The notes under the pieces: generated by a model
Databases searched by the model: none
Told to the model about the DNA's origin: nothing
The model's input: the letters and a program-made list of their open reading frames with translations, nothing else
Translations under genes and position numbers: made by a program
Source of the DNA: a virus
Reading direction: 5' to 3' (one strand)
Virus record (IMG/VR): IMGVR_UViG_3300044612_000975
Coordinates: 1 to 20,021 of that record
Length of the DNA stretch: 20,021 nucleotides
In this document: positions 2,970-14,940 of the stretch, piece by piece
Layout of the letters: each line of letters starts with the position of its first letter
How positions within the stretch are numbered: the stretch's first letter is position 1

Positions 2970-3509
2970 ATGAAGCCCGTACTGTTCCTTGATGTCGACG
3001 GAGTGCTCAGCGCCCTGAGAGAGTCTCCGTGGGCGGAGTCGGTCTCGTCCGCAGTGAAGGTCGCAGACTACCCGCACTCGTTCCTCATCAACACCTCCCC
3101 TTTGCTCGGGTTCCGGCTTCAGCAGCTGCCCGTTGACATCCACTGGCTGACCACTTGGCGGGAGGACGCCAACACTCTGATTTCCCCTCTTGTTGGCTTG
3201 CCTGATGACTTGCCGGTAGTGGATTGGCAGATCGCCTTTGGCGAGCCGTCGAGCATCGACGGCAAGCGCCGTGCAGTGGAGGCGTGGACCGAGGCCAATC
3301 CCGGGCACCCCTACATCTGGATTGACGACGAGCACTGGCGTCCTCGTCCACACCTCCCTTCGCTCTTCATAGAGGGCGGGCTGTCCCTGATCGTCGGTCC
3401 AATGTCGTCTCGGGGCCTGACTCCAGAGGACATCGACAAGGTGGAGCAGTGGCTCTTGGGCTTGCCCGAAGAAGTACTATCTGGGGATGGCCGTCAGACG
3501 GGTTGGTGA
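2970..3509 (+). CDS. HAD-superfamily hydrolase-like protein
   Basis: This 179-residue protein has the haloacid-dehalogenase signature in order: motif I F-L-D-V-D-G-V-L with Asp8 and Asp10, motif II L-T-T-W (60-63), a lysine near 99 (D-G-K-R) and motif III W-I-D-D-E (117-121). These are the nucleophile, acid/base, phosphate-binding and magnesium residues of the family. The short architecture with T-T-W and I-D-D resembles HAD domains linked to RNA repair (HAD_SAK type), so a phosphatase acting on nucleic-acid ends or small phosphates is plausible; this is inference. It is read divergently from the accessory operon, probably from a leaderless mRNA. Its 3' end overlaps the next gene by 23 bases. 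Confidence 0.8.
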   Translation: MKPVLFLDVDGVLSALRESPWAESVSSAVKVADYPHSFLINTSPLLGFRLQQLPVDIHWLTTWREDANTLISPLVGLPDDLPVVDWQIAFGEPSSIDGKRRAVEAWTEANPGHPYIWIDDEHWRPRPHLPSLFIEGGLSLIVGPMSSRGLTPEDIDKVEQWLLGLPEEVLSGDGRQTGW

Positions 3510-4797: not shown

Positions 4798-6405
4798 TCA
4801 ACGAAACCACGGGGCCTCTGCCACTTCCACGACTTCGCCGACATCCTCTACCGTCATCATGGTCGCAATGGCGAGACTGTCCACATAGTCATCGTGGGCG
4901 TCCCTGCTGTCGTCTGGAGCCTGAATGAGCATGTAGTTGCCCTTCATGACCTTCTCGGCGTCCTCCATCTGCTGCCGAAACCGCTTCCAGACACGAGTCC
5001 TGCGGGCCTTGGAATGCCCCGGGTACAGCAGCAGGTTCCTCTGCAGCAGCTGAATCAGGTGCTTCCAGCGATCCGCCTGATTCTTGAGGTCTGACGTGAC
5101 GGGAACGACCTCAACCTGATGTCCAATCAGGCGGTCAAGTCGTTGAGCAACGGCATCACCCATGCCCTGAGCGTCGACTCCAACTCTGGCGATGTTGTAG
5201 TTGGAGAGAAAGTCCACGATCTGGAAGTACTGCTCTTCCCAGTCCGTGTGGGTGATCTCCAGCCAGTTCAGGATGCGGTGTTCGTAGTACCCCGCCGGGT
5301 CTGGATGATCCCAATCTACCCAGCACACCGTGACCACCGTCGAGTCCTTGACTCGTGCCACGTCGATTCCCGCCACACATGGCGTGCGGTGCCATGACTT
5401 GACTATCTCCATGGACTTGTCCGCTAGATAGTCAAGGTCATCTTCAGTGACCAGCATGCCCCGGTCGAGCATCCACTTGAGTGCGTAGCTGAGCTGGAAC
5501 TCGTCCGAGTCCTCGCCGAGTCTCACCTTCTCCTTCTGGATGAACTTGGCGTAGTACGGGTTGTACTTGGAGACAACCTTCCAGTTGTACTCGAAGTGGT
5601 AGTTCTTTGCTCCTCGGTTGGTGGAGCGACGCTTGTTGTGCTGGATGGCCTTGTAGTAGTCACCCTTGTGGAAAGAGGGCGTGCCGATCTTGCAGATCGT
5701 CCCAGAGTTCGCAGCCAACATCGGATGTATCGACTTGCGTACCATCAGGTCGTCAGCCTCCTGCGCCTCGTCAAGGATGATGACGTGGTAGGAGGCGCCT
5801 TCGATCTTGGCCTTTGGGTTGGCGGTCTGACGGCGACAGAATGACCCTGACTTCAGCTTGAGGATCTTCGACCCGTCATCGACCTTCTCGTCAATTTCCG
5901 GGTCAGACAGGAACATCTTCGCTCGGTCGTTCGTGAGCTTGTCACGTACGCGCCCGTAGATGAACTCGCTCTGAGTGTCGGTTGGGGCGAAGAGGCCGAC
6001 CCACACGCCCCGCTTGAAGCGGTCGAACATCGGGTACGACAGCGCCAGCTTGGGGAACAGCACTATCACGCCTGCCACGATGATCGCCATCGTCTCTGAC
6101 TTCCCCGACTGACGCGACCACGTAGCGGTCAGTTCCTCGCCGTCGGCAAGGAGGATCGACTCGATAAGCCGGTAAGCCATGTCCCGCTGGTACGGGCGCA
6201 GCTCCATGTCGGCCAGCTCCTCGCAGAAGACGATTGTCCTCAGGATGATCTGGTGGATGAACTCCTTGTCGGACTCCGACAGGGCAGCGTAGGCAAGCCC
6301 GGTGCCGTCGTCCTCGTCCGGCTCCAGCGGCTCGGCTTCCTCCTCTAGGGGGTGCTCGAAGAGCATCTCGGGGTTGCCAAGATCTTCGTACAGAGGAGTC
6401 GCCAT
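4798..6405 (-). CDS. terL: Terminase large subunit
   Basis: This 535-residue protein is the ATPase-nuclease that cuts concatemeric phage DNA and drives it into the prohead through the portal. Visible motifs are a Walker A-like S-R-Q-S-G-K-S-E (97-104), Walker B V-I-I-L-D-E-A-Q-E (208-216) and the coupling motif G-T-P (241-243). The RNase H-like nuclease part has acidic residues in G-I-D-V-A (346-350), V-G-V-D-A-Q-G (408-414) and D-A-H-D-D-Y-V-D-S-L-A (502-512). The length is normal for the family. The first 40 residues are an acidic, probably disordered extension. It sits in a minus-strand operon behind a cysteine-rich coiled-coil protein, nine bases after that stop, while the portal is on the other strand. 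All key residues appear present. Confidence 0.95.
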   Translation of the reverse strand: MATPLYEDLGNPEMLFEHPLEEEAEPLEPDEDDGTGLAYAALSESDKEFIHQIILRTIVFCEELADMELRPYQRDMAYRLIESILLADGEELTATWSRQSGKSETMAIIVAGVIVLFPKLALSYPMFDRFKRGVWVGLFAPTDTQSEFIYGRVRDKLTNDRAKMFLSDPEIDEKVDDGSKILKLKSGSFCRRQTANPKAKIEGASYHVIILDEAQEADDLMVRKSIHPMLAANSGTICKIGTPSFHKGDYYKAIQHNKRRSTNRGAKNYHFEYNWKVVSKYNPYYAKFIQKEKVRLGEDSDEFQLSYALKWMLDRGMLVTEDDLDYLADKSMEIVKSWHRTPCVAGIDVARVKDSTVVTVCWVDWDHPDPAGYYEHRILNWLEITHTDWEEQYFQIVDFLSNYNIARVGVDAQGMGDAVAQRLDRLIGHQVEVVPVTSDLKNQADRWKHLIQLLQRNLLLYPGHSKARRTRVWKRFRQQMEDAEKVMKGNYMLIQAPDDSRDAHDDYVDSLAIATMMTVEDVGEVVEVAEAPWFR

Positions 6406-11778: not shown

Positions 11779-13134
11779 ATGGCCGCTCGCCCCCGACCTA
11801 ACAGCCGCAGTAGGGACATCCCGTACAGCGAGCATGTGGACGTGCCGGTACAGGGACCCGAGGCGGACAACGTCTTCCGGCCCGGAAGCCCCCGCAGCAA
11901 GGGAGCACTGCCCACCGACAGGTCCCGCTTCGCTCGGCCCCCCAAGGACTTGACTCCGGAGGAGAGCGCCTCGATCAGGGGGGCCTCGGTAGCCCGGGAC
12001 CACTGGGAAGCTACGCCTGAGGGGGAGGCCCGGACCCGGGACGTGTCGCAGCTACTCAGTACCCAGATGAAGCCTGCTCAGATCTACGCCGTCAACGGCT
12101 GGGATCAGCAGACCGGCGTGGGTCCTCGTCACTACGACCGGCAACTGCCGGGAATGTCGGACCCTGCCGCCGCACCCCGACCGGTTCGCTGGGAGGAGCA
12201 CTCCCCAGAGACCCGCAGGCACATCGAGCGGGCCTTGGCGGCACATGGGACCAGCATCGACCAGATGGCCGATGATCTGGGCGCTCAGATCGACCAAGCC
12301 AACGTCCGAGCCGCTGAGGCCGGGCACTCGGGGAACCCCTACGCCATGGACTTCTACTCGACGGGTGAGCCACGTGCGGTGCTCGACCAGTCGGCTCGGG
12401 ATCTCGGCATCCCGCAGCCCACACACGCTCTGATGAACGCATTCACGTCCCCGCAGACGAAGTTCTCTCAGGACACCAACTCAGGGCGGAGGTACCCCAA
12501 CGATGAGGCCGCCCGACATGTTGTGGAGCATGTTCAGGGCGGGGGCACGGCCACCAGTCTCACGAACGAGCGCACCGATGGCTCAGGTAAGCGCCATCAG
12601 GGGTTCGTAGGCAACATGCGAACTGCTGCGACGGCGATGGAGATGCACCTGCAGGGGATTCCTCCGCAGGACTGGGCAGGACCATCAGGCGACCCCATGG
12701 TTGGTCCCAAGACCGGGTCCTACGCCAACTCGTGGTCGGACTCACACCCTCAGTTCACCGTGGCCGATGTCCATACCGGGGGTGGGGGAGCGCTGCCACA
12801 CCTCAGCTCTGAGAAGCCACTCCTTCGGGGGGAGTCAGGCGAGGTGCTGCTGTCCCAGAGCGGGGCCGAGAGGCGAGATAAGTCCGAGCGTGAGAAGGCG
12901 ATCGAGACCATCCCGTACGCCCACGCAGCGATCGATTACGCCATGCGGCAGGCCATGCAGAAGAGAGGACTCGGCAGCATACGGGACTCTCAGGCCACCC
13001 AGTGGGGAGAGGAGCAGCTGCAGCGAGGCGAGGCTGGGCTGCGTAGTGCTCCCAGCAGCAGCACGGCCTATCCGACCCGTCCGAGTGGCCGGAGGCAGAT
13101 CGAGGGCCAGATCGAAGCCTTCCCGGGTGTGTAG
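11779..13134 (+). CDS. Large pre-portal protein, possibly DUF7178-like
   Basis: This 451-residue protein is disordered and Pro/Arg-rich for about 90 residues, then probably helical. Blocks in order are A-F-T-S-P-Q-T-K-F-S (about 221-230), a stretch around N-D-E-A-A-R-H-V-V-E-H-V, G-F-V-G-N-M-R-T-A-A-T-A-M, V-G-P-K-T-G-S-Y-A-N-S-W, F-T-V-A-D-V-H-T and R-D-S-Q-A-T-Q-W-G-E-E-Q. This order (S-P-Q, G-N, G-P-K-x-x-x-Y-x-N, T-V-x-D-x-H, Q-A-x-x-W) recalls an actinobacteriophage family of unknown function that I associate with DUF7178; this is recollection, not a search. AAGGA lies about ten bases before the ATG. It directly precedes the portal region, so a virion or capsid-internal role is inferred. 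Confidence 0.75.
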   Translation: MAARPRPNSRSRDIPYSEHVDVPVQGPEADNVFRPGSPRSKGALPTDRSRFARPPKDLTPEESASIRGASVARDHWEATPEGEARTRDVSQLLSTQMKPAQIYAVNGWDQQTGVGPRHYDRQLPGMSDPAAAPRPVRWEEHSPETRRHIERALAAHGTSIDQMADDLGAQIDQANVRAAEAGHSGNPYAMDFYSTGEPRAVLDQSARDLGIPQPTHALMNAFTSPQTKFSQDTNSGRRYPNDEAARHVVEHVQGGGTATSLTNERTDGSGKRHQGFVGNMRTAATAMEMHLQGIPPQDWAGPSGDPMVGPKTGSYANSWSDSHPQFTVADVHTGGGGALPHLSSEKPLLRGESGEVLLSQSGAERRDKSEREKAIETIPYAHAAIDYAMRQAMQKRGLGSIRDSQATQWGEEQLQRGEAGLRSAPSSSTAYPTRPSGRRQIEGQIEAFPGV

Positions 13135-13151
13135 TCTGCGGGTCGTGTAAC

Positions 13152-13271
13152 GTGGGTCTCGGCTACTTCTACGACAGCCCTGAGCGGTTGAAGAGCGCCA
13201 TCACGTATTTGTCCGGAGACTCGGTGTCGGCACCGCACGTCGTAGCAGTGGAAGGGGGTGAAGGTGAATGA
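13152..13271 (+). CDS. Small ORF coupled to the portal start
   Basis: This 39-residue reading frame begins at GTG 13152 and ends in an ATGA overlap with the ATG of the portal N-terminal segment (13268). It reads Y-F-Y-D-S-P-E-R-L-K-S-A-I-T-Y-L, a plausible helix, then a short valine-rich strand and an acidic glycine tail. The coupling is the main evidence. No convincing ribosome binding site precedes the GTG, and the frame is open further upstream without a start codon, so the true start is uncertain. Confidence 0.45.
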   Translation: MGLGYFYDSPERLKSAITYLSGDSVSAPHVVAVEGGEGE

Positions 13272-13423
13272 CTGCATTCTTCTCACCGTCCTACCGAGCT
13301 GCAGCTTCGGACCTGACGGTTTCAGTCTCGCCTCTGGGCCTAGTTGAACTTGCTGACGAGGAGTTCGAGGTGCATGGCCCTCGACTCAACCGTTACGCGA
13401 GCAACTGGGCCTGGAGACCCTAA
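13268..13423 (+). CDS. Portal protein, N-terminal segment in a separate frame
   Basis: This 51-residue reading frame starts at ATG 13268, overlapping the preceding small frame by ATGA, with GAAGG just upstream. Its second half, L-A-D-E-E-F-E-V-H-G-P-R-L-N-R-Y-A, then S-N-W-A-W, has the character of the N-terminus of SPP1-type portals of actinobacteriophages, in which N-W-A-x is followed directly by Y-L-G-H-H-W. Here N-W-A-W ends at 13414, a stop TAA comes at 13421-13423, and Y-L-G-H-H-W-A-Y-R-R-E resumes at 13426 in the -1 (+2) frame, continuous with the main portal frame. The segment is almost certainly part of the portal, separated by an 11-base excess, a one-base error, or a programmed recoding event. 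Confidence 0.75.
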   Translation: MTAFFSPSYRAAASDLTVSVSPLGLVELADEEFEVHGPRLNRYASNWAWRP

Positions 13424-13458
13424 GGTACCTTGGACACCACTGGGCCTACCGCCGTGAA

Positions 13459-14940
13459 ATGGGTGACGCACAGCTGACGTTCAACTACGTCAGAGCACTT
13501 GCTGACTACAAGATCAACTTCACCTTTGGTACCCCTATTCACTTCGGGTCTCCAGAGGCAACTGAAGTCATCACTCCCTTCCTTCTGAAGAAGGTATGGG
13601 ACGATGACAACGATCGCAGGTCGTTGATCTGGGAAATCGGTCAGTTGGGCACGGTATCTGGCGATGTGTTCGTCAAGGTCGCCTACGAGCCTCCCTACGA
13701 AGACCCGCTGGGTAACCCCGTTGCAGGCAAGATTCGCATCCTGCCTCTCAATCCGGCGCACTGCTTCCCGGAATTTCATCCTCATGATCGGGCAAGGTTC
13801 ACCCGTTTCAAGTTGAAGTACAAGTTCTGGGGCACGGGGGCTGACGGCACCCGCCAGATTCATACTTACACCGAGATCATCACTGACGAGATGGTTGAGG
13901 AGTACATCAACGACGACCTGATCGATTCCCGGCCCAATCCTCTCGGCATGATTCCGATCGTCCATGCGACGAACATCGCCGTGGCATCAAGCCCGTGGGG
14001 GCTGTCTGATATTCAGGACATCGTCGGCCTGAACCGTGAGTTCAACGAGAAGGCCACTGAGGTCTCCGACATCATCAACTACCACGCTGCTCCGGTGACA
14101 GTGGTGACGGGCGCCAAGGCGTCGAACTTGGAGAAGGGGCCGAAGAAGGTCTGGGCCATCGGGAGTAAGGATGCCCGGGTCCAGAACCTGACCATGGATA
14201 CGAACTTGGCAGGCCCCATGGGCTACATGGAGCTGCTCAAGACGGCCATGCACGAGATCACTGGGGTGCCCATGAGCGCTCTGGGGCAGGTTCAGCCGAT
14301 CTCGAACACGTCGGGAACTGCTCTCCACATGACCTACTTCTCGCTGATGCAGCAGCACACGATGAAGAAGGTGCAGTACGCCAAGCTCTTCAAGAACATC
14401 AATGAGCTGGTGATCCGCACTGCGGTGGCCTACGAGCCGGAACTCCTTGAGTACCGCCCTGAAATCGCAGGGGTATACCCGAAGCCCGGGCAGTACGTGC
14501 TGCTCGACCCCCGGGACCCTGCCACCTACAAGAGCACCATCGAATGGGATTCCCCGCTACCGATGGACTCGCTCATCAAGCTGAACGAGGTGCAGGGCCT
14601 GATGACAATGGGCTTGGAATCCAAGAGGGGTGCCCTGAAGTCGATGGGGAGCAGCTTCCCAGACCAGAAGCTGCAGGAGATCTTCGAGGAACTGCTCGAA
14701 GACATGAAGCAGCAGGGCGGCTTGGGTCTCACTCAGGCGCAGATCAACCAGTTCATCCTTGCTGCCACCGGCTTCACCGCCGACGGCCAGCCGGTGGTGG
14801 TGCCCGGGACCGAACAAACAGACGCCGAAGGCAACCCTGTAGGCATGGCGCCAGCTGTCAACCCTGACATGGCAAATGCTGTGATGGAGAAAGCCTTTGG
14901 TGTGATGCCCCCAGCAAGAGATGATCTGACTGAGGATTGA
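13459..14940 (+). CDS. Portal protein (SPP1 gp6-like), main reading frame
   Basis: The main frame has 493 residues from ATG 13459. It forms the twelve-subunit ring at one head vertex through which terminase pumps DNA. Family features are Q-L-T-F-N-Y-V-R-A-L-A-D near the start, L-N-R-E-F-N-E-K-A-T-E-V-S-D, A-P-V-T-V-V-T-G-A-K, H-E-I-T-G-V-P-M-S-A-L-G and Q-P-I-S-N-T-S-G-T-A-L. The last ~90 residues are Gln/Pro-rich. ATG 13459 has no ribosome binding site and would delete the conserved Y-L-G-H-H-W-A-Y-R-R-E, which is open in this frame from 13426. The real protein probably starts at 13268 and crosses a frame shift at 13412-13425. Scaffold follows after 74 bases. Confidence 0.9.
   Translation: MGDAQLTFNYVRALADYKINFTFGTPIHFGSPEATEVITPFLLKKVWDDDNDRRSLIWEIGQLGTVSGDVFVKVAYEPPYEDPLGNPVAGKIRILPLNPAHCFPEFHPHDRARFTRFKLKYKFWGTGADGTRQIHTYTEIITDEMVEEYINDDLIDSRPNPLGMIPIVHATNIAVASSPWGLSDIQDIVGLNREFNEKATEVSDIINYHAAPVTVVTGAKASNLEKGPKKVWAIGSKDARVQNLTMDTNLAGPMGYMELLKTAMHEITGVPMSALGQVQPISNTSGTALHMTYFSLMQQHTMKKVQYAKLFKNINELVIRTAVAYEPELLEYRPEIAGVYPKPGQYVLLDPRDPATYKSTIEWDSPLPMDSLIKLNEVQGLMTMGLESKRGALKSMGSSFPDQKLQEIFEELLEDMKQQGGLGLTQAQINQFILAATGFTADGQPVVVPGTEQTDAEGNPVGMAPAVNPDMANAVMEKAFGVMPPARDDLTED

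What the first reader, a model, noticed from the sequence alone, without database searches (positions are those of the whole stretch)
13268..13470. Portal gene broken by an apparent 11-nt in-frame-stop insertion: recoding, bypassing or error
The N-terminal frame reads N-W-A-W up to 13414, then AGA CCC TAA. The portal frame resumes as Y-L-G-H-H-W-A-Y-R-R-E at 13426. My recollection of related portals is N-W-A-x-Y-L-G-H-H-W without a gap, so removing exactly 13415-13425 restores a normal protein. A ribosome hop from the TGG codon (13412-13414) to AGG (13423-13425), where the tRNA could pair at two of three bases, would skip the stop and do just that. A -1 shift before the stop would also join the frames but adds four or more extra residues. 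A sequencing indel or a recent mutation must be excluded first, since a phage without portal is dead.
Basis: partly seen in the sequence, partly recalled or inferred. Interest (0 to 1): 0.75.

Follow-up and report, generated by a model that had tools for sequence, protein, structure and literature searches.

The report
Ribosome-hop inserts in phage portal genes
A phage gene for the portal, the DNA gateway of the virus head, carries a tiny frame-breaking insert that the ribosome most likely jumps over, and about thirty different inserts of the same design occur in related phages and prophages, often beside a mobile DNA-cutting gene.

Summary
The 11-nt frame-breaking insert (window 13415-13425) is real. 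A second assembly carries it, and 17 reference proteins place it there. It is one of about 30 distinct inserts (4-18 nt) found at the start, rarely the middle, of this SPP1-type portal family: 36 of ~180 distinct portal 5' ends, including prophages in sequenced actinobacterial isolates. No comparable break turned up in capsid, scaffold or terminase genes. The inserts share a grammar. A codon X is followed by a stop, TTA or another rare codon, and the insert ends in the same, synonymous or near-cognate codon, after which native reading resumes. Identical or synonymous pairs: 10/17 in the discovery set (shuffled mean 1.3) and 10/12 in the validation set (mean 1.1); at least two of three positions match in 29/29. 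A ribosome hop from X to its copy restores the exact native protein whatever the insert length. Endonuclease VII or HNH genes, or their remnants, lie directly upstream in 14/33 insert carriers against 2/135 intact portals; the window keeps a remnant (13119-13271). This resembles T4 mobA/gene 60, but with minimal, recurrent hops. The hop itself is inferred, not shown experimentally.

The parts
13119..13271 (+). C-terminal remnant of an endonuclease-VII-like gene (50 aa + TGA); its stop overlaps the portal ATG
   Evidence: PF02945 E=5.8e-6, last 28 of 82 profile positions only; alignment with full-length copies in L013, L069, L107, L162
13268..13423 (+). Portal 5' ORF, 51 codons + TAA (MTAFFSPSYRAAASDLTVSVSPLGLVELADEEFEVHGPRLNRYASNWAWRP*)
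   Evidence: N-terminus conserved in portal-family loci
13412..13414 (+). Proposed take-off codon TGG (Trp)
   Evidence: position of the 11-nt excess; hop scan
13415..13425 (+). 11-nt insert AGACCCTAAGG; the next 0-frame codon is AGA (rare), and the in-frame stop TAA lies at 13421-13423
   Evidence: alignment with intact relatives; second assembly L005
13423..13425 (+). Proposed landing codon AGG (2 of 3 bases as in TGG); same landing codon as in insert classes B and B'
13426..14940 (+). Remainder of the portal ORF (504 codons + TGA), SPP1 gp6-like
   Evidence: PF05133 E=7.5e-22 for P0001; PHROG_64 portal E=4e-33

Best explanation
The window's portal gene carries an 11-nt translational-bypass insert. 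Ribosomes decode to Trp TGG 13412-13414 and are held up by the rare AGA and the nearby stop. Peptidyl-tRNA(Trp) leaves that codon, re-pairs at AGG 13423-13425, and decoding resumes at TAC 13426, giving a portal of normal sequence. The insert belongs to a recurrent class: an (often A/T-ending) copy of a portal codon, then a stop, TTA or other rare codon, then 0-10 further nt, placed before the native codon, over which the ribosome hops. Many of these inserts sit beside an endonuclease-VII or HNH gene or its remnant. The most likely reason they exist is that they interrupt that endonuclease's site in the portal gene and move with it by homing, as in the T4 mobA/gene 60 cassette. Shown here: the inserts, their grammar, their restriction to portal genes, purifying selection on the 3' part in insert-bearing lineages, and the endonuclease association. 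Inferred: the hop, its efficiency, and protection from cutting.
For: (1) Discovery set, 17 inserts: landing codon identical or synonymous to take-off in 10 (shuffle mean 1.27, max 6 of 5,000); at least 2/3 positions in 17/17 (mean 4.1, max 11); next 0-frame codon stop or TTA in 13/17 (mean 1.6, max 7). Validation set from later searches, 12 inserts: 10/12 (mean 1.06, max 7), 12/12 (mean 2.7, max 9), 8/12 (mean 0.83, max 5); the other next-codons are AGA, AGA and ATA, plus one tied parse. (2) TTA, AGA, AGG and ATA are the rarest non-Cys codons in 101,528 codons of intact portals. (3) Synonymous pairs run from A/T-ending take-off to C/G-ending landing 10:1 (p=0.012); take-off is AAT in 2 of 3 N|W inserts against 1/116 in intact relatives. 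(4) One mechanism covers inserts of 4, 6, 7, 8, 9, 10, 11 and 16 nt in all frames. (5) No ATG/GTG/TTG for 80, 75 and 59 codons after the break in L013, L012, L088. (6) Pairs sharing an insert: 3' part dN/dS 0.03-0.09 at pS up to 0.67. (7) Endonuclease or remnant directly upstream in 14/33 carriers vs 2/135 intact, p=8e-10; full-length 11/33 vs 0/135. (8) Four isolate genomes hold no other portal of this family.
Against: No protein, ribosome-profiling or reporter data. The window's own pair is near-cognate (TGG/AGG), the stop is the third codon of the gap and not the first, and no significant RNA structure was found (z -0.08). About half the carriers have no endonuclease beside the portal, so the protection story may not cover all inserts. 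The 4-nt inserts could also be +1 frameshifts. Low dN/dS between carriers could partly reflect homing into intact portals. The sharp 5' tract identity (L013/L029, 97-100% from -220 to about +15, but 75-88% across the rest of the endonuclease gene) fits short gene conversion or RNA-level constraint equally well.
Confidence: 0.78

Rival explanations
1. Conventional recoding, different in each case: -1 frameshift on CCC_TAA in the window, +1 shifts at 4-, 7-, 10- and 16-nt inserts, stop read-through at the 6- and 9-nt inserts, each adding one to a few residues.
For: A -1 shift in the window joins the frames as NWAW-RPLR-YLGHHW; 4-nt inserts such as AAC TGAC TGG look like stop-C contexts.
Against: Needs at least three mechanisms and gives no reason for the landing-codon match in 29/29 inserts. 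P-site re-pairing at +1 is poor for AAY and TAY. Inserts after sense TTA, AGA or ATA need a separate reason.
Confidence: 0.1
2. Split portal: the 51-aa N-terminal peptide and a separately initiated C-terminal protein assemble together.
For: The window has ATG 13459 eleven codons after the break and an SD-like TAAGG at 13421-13425.
Against: L013, L012 and L088 have no ATG/GTG/TTG for 59-80 codons after the break, and Met 13459 is not conserved. Most inserts carry no SD-like motif.
Confidence: 0.04
3. Assembly or sequencing error, or decayed portal genes of dead phages or prophages.
For: Most carriers are metagenome contigs and reads were not available; isolate examples could be decaying prophages.
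Against: No comparable breaks in MCP, scaffold or TerL. Same insert in separate metagenomes (L270/L272/L273) and in diverged lineages with dN/dS 0.03-0.06. Inserts in several isolate genomes. Random decay would not give matched codons.
Confidence: 0.03
4. The codon match is a by-product of how the insert forms (a 3-nt target duplication), not of selection for hopping.
For: Exact triplet copies in several inserts (TGG/TGG, GCT/GCT, GAA/GAA, GAG/GAG).
Against: About half of the matched pairs are synonymous, not identical (CTT/CTC, TAT/TAC, TCT/TCC, CGA/CGC, TTT/TTC, GAA/GAG), and differ in one direction. It also does not explain the stop, TTA or rare codons next to take-off, or how portal is made.
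Confidence: 0.05

Closest known systems
T4 gene 60 programmed bypassing with its mobA (HNH endonuclease) neighbourhood (reviewed in PMC3014915, PMC5009743)
   Same: Essential phage gene interrupted near its start by a non-coding gap holding stops; endonuclease gene or remnant just upstream; [quoted passage not shown] the T4 insert is thought to protect against that endonuclease.
   Different: Gap of 1-15 nt against ~47-50 nt; ~30 distinct inserts in many phages against one; several endonuclease families; portal and not topoisomerase; sense TTA, AGA or ATA next to take-off as often as stops; no consistent stem-loop found; the window's pair is near-cognate.
Byps of Magnusiomyces capitatus mitochondria (81 instances; reviewed in PMC5009743)
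   Same: Many short inserts in one gene set, an unused or slow codon after take-off, matched or two-of-three matched landing.
   Different: Phage and bacterial ribosomes, one gene only, shorter inserts, endonuclease neighbours.
Streptomyces phage Hau3 terminase, suspected bypass at UUA (cited in PMC5009743)
   Same: Actinobacterial phage head gene, short gap, UUA next to take-off.
   Different: Portal and not terminase; many independent inserts; stops as well as UUA. The original paper was not available here.
Synthetic 'stop hops' in E. coli (Weiss et al. 1987, cited in PMC5009743)
   Same: Matched codons flanking one stop, e.g. L012 TGG TAG TGG and L308 CTT TGA CTC.
   Different: Natural and in an essential gene; the 2016 review states that no natural in-frame stop hops were known.

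Membership tests
Programmed translational bypassing (gene 60 type) | Non-coding gap between two ORFs that together encode one conserved protein | tested here: met
   Gap 13415-13425 exact against intact relatives
[quoted passage not shown]
   Window TGG/AGG near-cognate only; 20 of 29 tested inserts identical or synonymous
Programmed translational bypassing (gene 60 type) | Stop codon directly after take-off | tested here: not met
   Window: AGA then CCC then TAA; met in many relatives
Programmed translational bypassing (gene 60 type) | Take-off stem-loop | tested here: inconclusive
   Window z -0.08; L088 z -3.49, L013 z -1.85, others weak
Programmed translational bypassing (gene 60 type) | Nascent-peptide signal | not testable with these tools
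   The 5' peptide is conserved in intact portals too, so conservation cannot show it
Programmed translational bypassing (gene 60 type) | Protein shown to lack gap-coded residues | not testable with these tools
   Needs mass spectrometry
mobA-like endonuclease plus bypass cassette | Endonuclease gene or remnant adjacent to the interrupted gene | tested here: met
   Window: PF02945 remnant 13119-13271; family 14/33 vs 2/135
mobA-like endonuclease plus bypass cassette | Endonuclease cuts the insert-free gene and spares the insert-bearing one | not testable with these tools
   Needs a cleavage assay
SPP1 gp6-like portal (PF05133) | Profile match above cut-off | tested here: met
   78.3 bits vs cut-off 25.5
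Endonuclease VII (PF02945) | Full DHDH nuclease domain | tested here: not met
   Window keeps only the last 28 of 82 profile positions; full domain in L013, L069, L107, L162

The most novel reading that the evidence does not exclude
Actinobacterial phages and prophages carry a widespread class of minimal mobile bypass elements (4-18 nt) in the portal gene. The only cis requirements may be a weakly paired take-off codon, a hungry codon (stop, UUA, AGA, AUA, CUA) and a nearby synonymous landing codon, linked to several endonuclease families. UUA-dependent hopping might also tie portal synthesis to the host's bldA state.
Probability: 0.55. Interest if true: 0.93.

Novelty: new variant of a known kind. 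Interest (0 to 1): 0.9.

Why it matters
Bypassing has been known in bacteria from essentially one proven case, T4 gene 60. The 2016 review of recoding (PMC5009743) says short matched-codon counterparts were long expected, that no natural in-frame stop hops were known, and that UUA in Streptomyces phages was the best lead. Here are about thirty natural short candidates in one essential gene, some in cultured strains, so the requirements can be read from nature and tested in simple reporters. It also supplies a second, repeated instance of endonucleases occurring beside such inserts, and warns that gene finders will call these portal genes split or dead.

Tried and rejected
Restart at Met 13459 (not conserved; no start codons in L013, L012, L088). 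Alternative genetic code (all three stops, plus TTA, AGA and ATA, and frame changes). Second intact portal copy (none in four isolate genomes). RNA structure as a common signal (only L088 strongly structured; its relative L106, with the same insert, has a weaker-looking stem by eye). A six-frame scan for breaks in all ORFs was swamped by antisense ORFs and was replaced by real-protein queries. A free search for matched codons around TTA in intact portals is uninformative (59/124 when any displacement 4-16 is allowed); the tests used fix the displacement by the native protein. Endonuclease hits in intact loci at -60 were judged artefacts, since the L162 query begins with a portal copy; the raw table with them in was 14/20 vs 9/126, p=3e-6. 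L064 was dropped as a contig-edge artefact. PMC held no report of bypassing in portal genes; subscription journals are not covered.

Full report
The observation. In the window (a 20,021-base IMG/VR virus record) ATG 13268 opens 51 codons ending NRYASNWAW-R-P, then TAA 13421-13423. From TAC 13426 a 504-codon frame reads YLGHHWAYRREMGD.. to 14940. The 3' part is an SPP1 gp6-like portal (PF05133; PHROG_64). Relatives read NWAW-YLGHHW without a gap, so the insert is exactly AGACCCTAAGG, 13415-13425; seventeen queries give an 11-nt excess there. L005/L096 is a second assembly with the same insert.

It is not alone. Different short inserts sit at or near the same place in other members (take-off[gap]landing): TGG[CTATAA]AGG (L013, L029, L032, L034), TGG[ATATAA]AGG (L069), TAT[TGAA]TAC (L088, L086/L106), TGG[TAG]TGG (L012), GCT[TGAATAA]GCT (L187, L188), AAC[T]GAC (L185, L308), AAT[T]TAC (L107), AAT[T]AGC (L162), GAA[CTACC]GAA (L017), CTT[TGA]CTC (L308), CTT[TTAC]CTC (L082, L373), TAT[T]TAC and CGA[TTA]CGC (L081, L082, L378), GAA[TTAT]GAA (L084), TAT[T]GAC (L269, L270, L272, L273), TCT[TAGCG]TCC (L106, second insert). 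Later searches added GAA[TTAGC]GAG, GAG[TTACC]GAG, GAA[TTACC]GAA, GAA[TAAGT]GCA, GAA[TAGC]GAA, GAG[TTAGG]TAG, GAG[TTAA]GAG, CGA[TTAC]CGC at codon ~175 (L321, L365), CGA[AGACC]CGC (Actinomadura atramentaria DSM 43919), TAC[T]TAT (Nonomuraea sp. SYSU D8015), GAG[AGACCCGCCGGTC]GAG (Streptomyces sp. UNOC14_S4), TTT[ATAGG]TTC (Armatimonadota MAG) and two less regular ones in L391. In all, 36 of about 180 distinct portal 5' ends carry an insert (without L064).

Grammar. The native protein fixes where decoding must stop and resume, hence the displacement. In the first 17 inserts the codon before the resume point matches the take-off codon (identical or synonymous) in 10 and in at least two positions in 17; shuffled inserts give 1.27 and 4.1 on average, with maxima 6 and 11 of 5,000. 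The 0-frame codon after take-off is a stop or TTA in 13 (shuffled 1.6, max 7). The grammar was formed on these; the 12 validation inserts, gathered afterwards, give 10/12, 12/12 and 8/12 against 1.06, 2.7 and 0.83. The remaining after-take-off codons are AGA, ATA and CTA; TTA, AGA and ATA are among the rarest codons of intact portals. Caveats: parses are sometimes tied (L321/L365 second insert), inserts in related phages are not fully independent, classes A, B and B' look homologous, and the two L391 inserts were not part of either test.

Direction of the match. Synonymous pairs go from A/T-ending take-off to C/G-ending landing 10:1. At the N|W site take-off is AAT in two of three inserts but in 1 of 116 intact portals. 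This fits easy release and strong re-pairing and does not follow from a simple 3-nt duplication.

Why it is not error or decay. The same searches found no comparable breaks in MCP, scaffold or TerL. L270, L272 and L273 come from three metagenomes. Insert-sharing pairs have dN/dS 0.03-0.09 in the 3' part, at synonymous difference up to 0.67. Several carriers are isolate genomes, and four of them hold no second portal of this family.

Neighbouring endonucleases. L013, L029, L034, L069, L107, L162, L185, L187 and L188 have an endonuclease-VII gene whose end overlaps or abuts the portal start. L088 has an HNH endonuclease there (PHROG_374 E=1.5e-47) and L341 another (PF01844 E=6e-12). L032, L012, L308 and the window keep remnants. 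In L069, L162 and L308 the endonuclease ORF or its remnant begins with an extra copy of the portal N-terminus, as if a cassette with its own portal 5' end had been inserted. Fourteen of 33 insert carriers but 2 of 135 intact portals have an endonuclease or remnant directly upstream (Fisher p=8e-10, after removing artefacts noted under rejected items). L013/L029 are 97-100% identical from -220 to about +15 around the insert and 75-88% immediately outside, which fits conversion of the 5' end with the insert into different portals, or RNA-level constraint.

Mechanism. One hop model covers inserts in all three frames. In the window peptidyl-tRNA(Trp) would leave TGG 13412 and re-pair at AGG 13423 with two of three bases. 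Two-of-three landing is known from yeast mitochondrial bypassing (PMC5009743). Restart is disfavoured by lack of start codons. Frameshift or read-through would need several mechanisms and leaves the codon match unexplained. RNA folding gave no common signal. The hop has not been shown experimentally.

Comparison with the known. T4 gene 60 has the same plan: gap, stop, matched codons, endonuclease neighbour. The present class differs in minimal gaps, sense hungry codons including UUA, the target gene, and its recurrence. It is filed as a new variant of programmed bypassing, by resemblance; membership of the window's own insert is incomplete, since its codons are near-cognate and no stop directly follows take-off.

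Noticed in passing
L308:1342-3990: Portal 3' ORF is 883 aa against ~535 in relatives, with the homologous part split; possibly an intein, in a gene that also carries two hop inserts.
   Followed up: no
L106:1-1755: The terminase ORF begins with a stretch (..VEDKHWFIANGMQVSNSGKSE..) that looks like the end of an intein.
   Followed up: no
L081, L082, L378: In-frame CGA-TTA-CGC adds two sense codons; it may be read normally or hopped.
   Followed up: partly
L013 and L069, about 60-45 nt upstream of the insert: Perfect 16-bp palindrome GAGGTCCATGGACCTC in the portal 5' exon of both lineages, predicted as a hairpin.
   Followed up: no
window 2970-3509 and 4798-6405: HAD_SAK_2 (PF18143) protein, E=4.9e-10, on the + strand; the terminase gene lies on the opposite strand to portal and capsid.
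   Followed up: no
L324, L326: Intact portals with a weak HNH match ~115-120 nt upstream: possible endonuclease without an insert.
   Followed up: no
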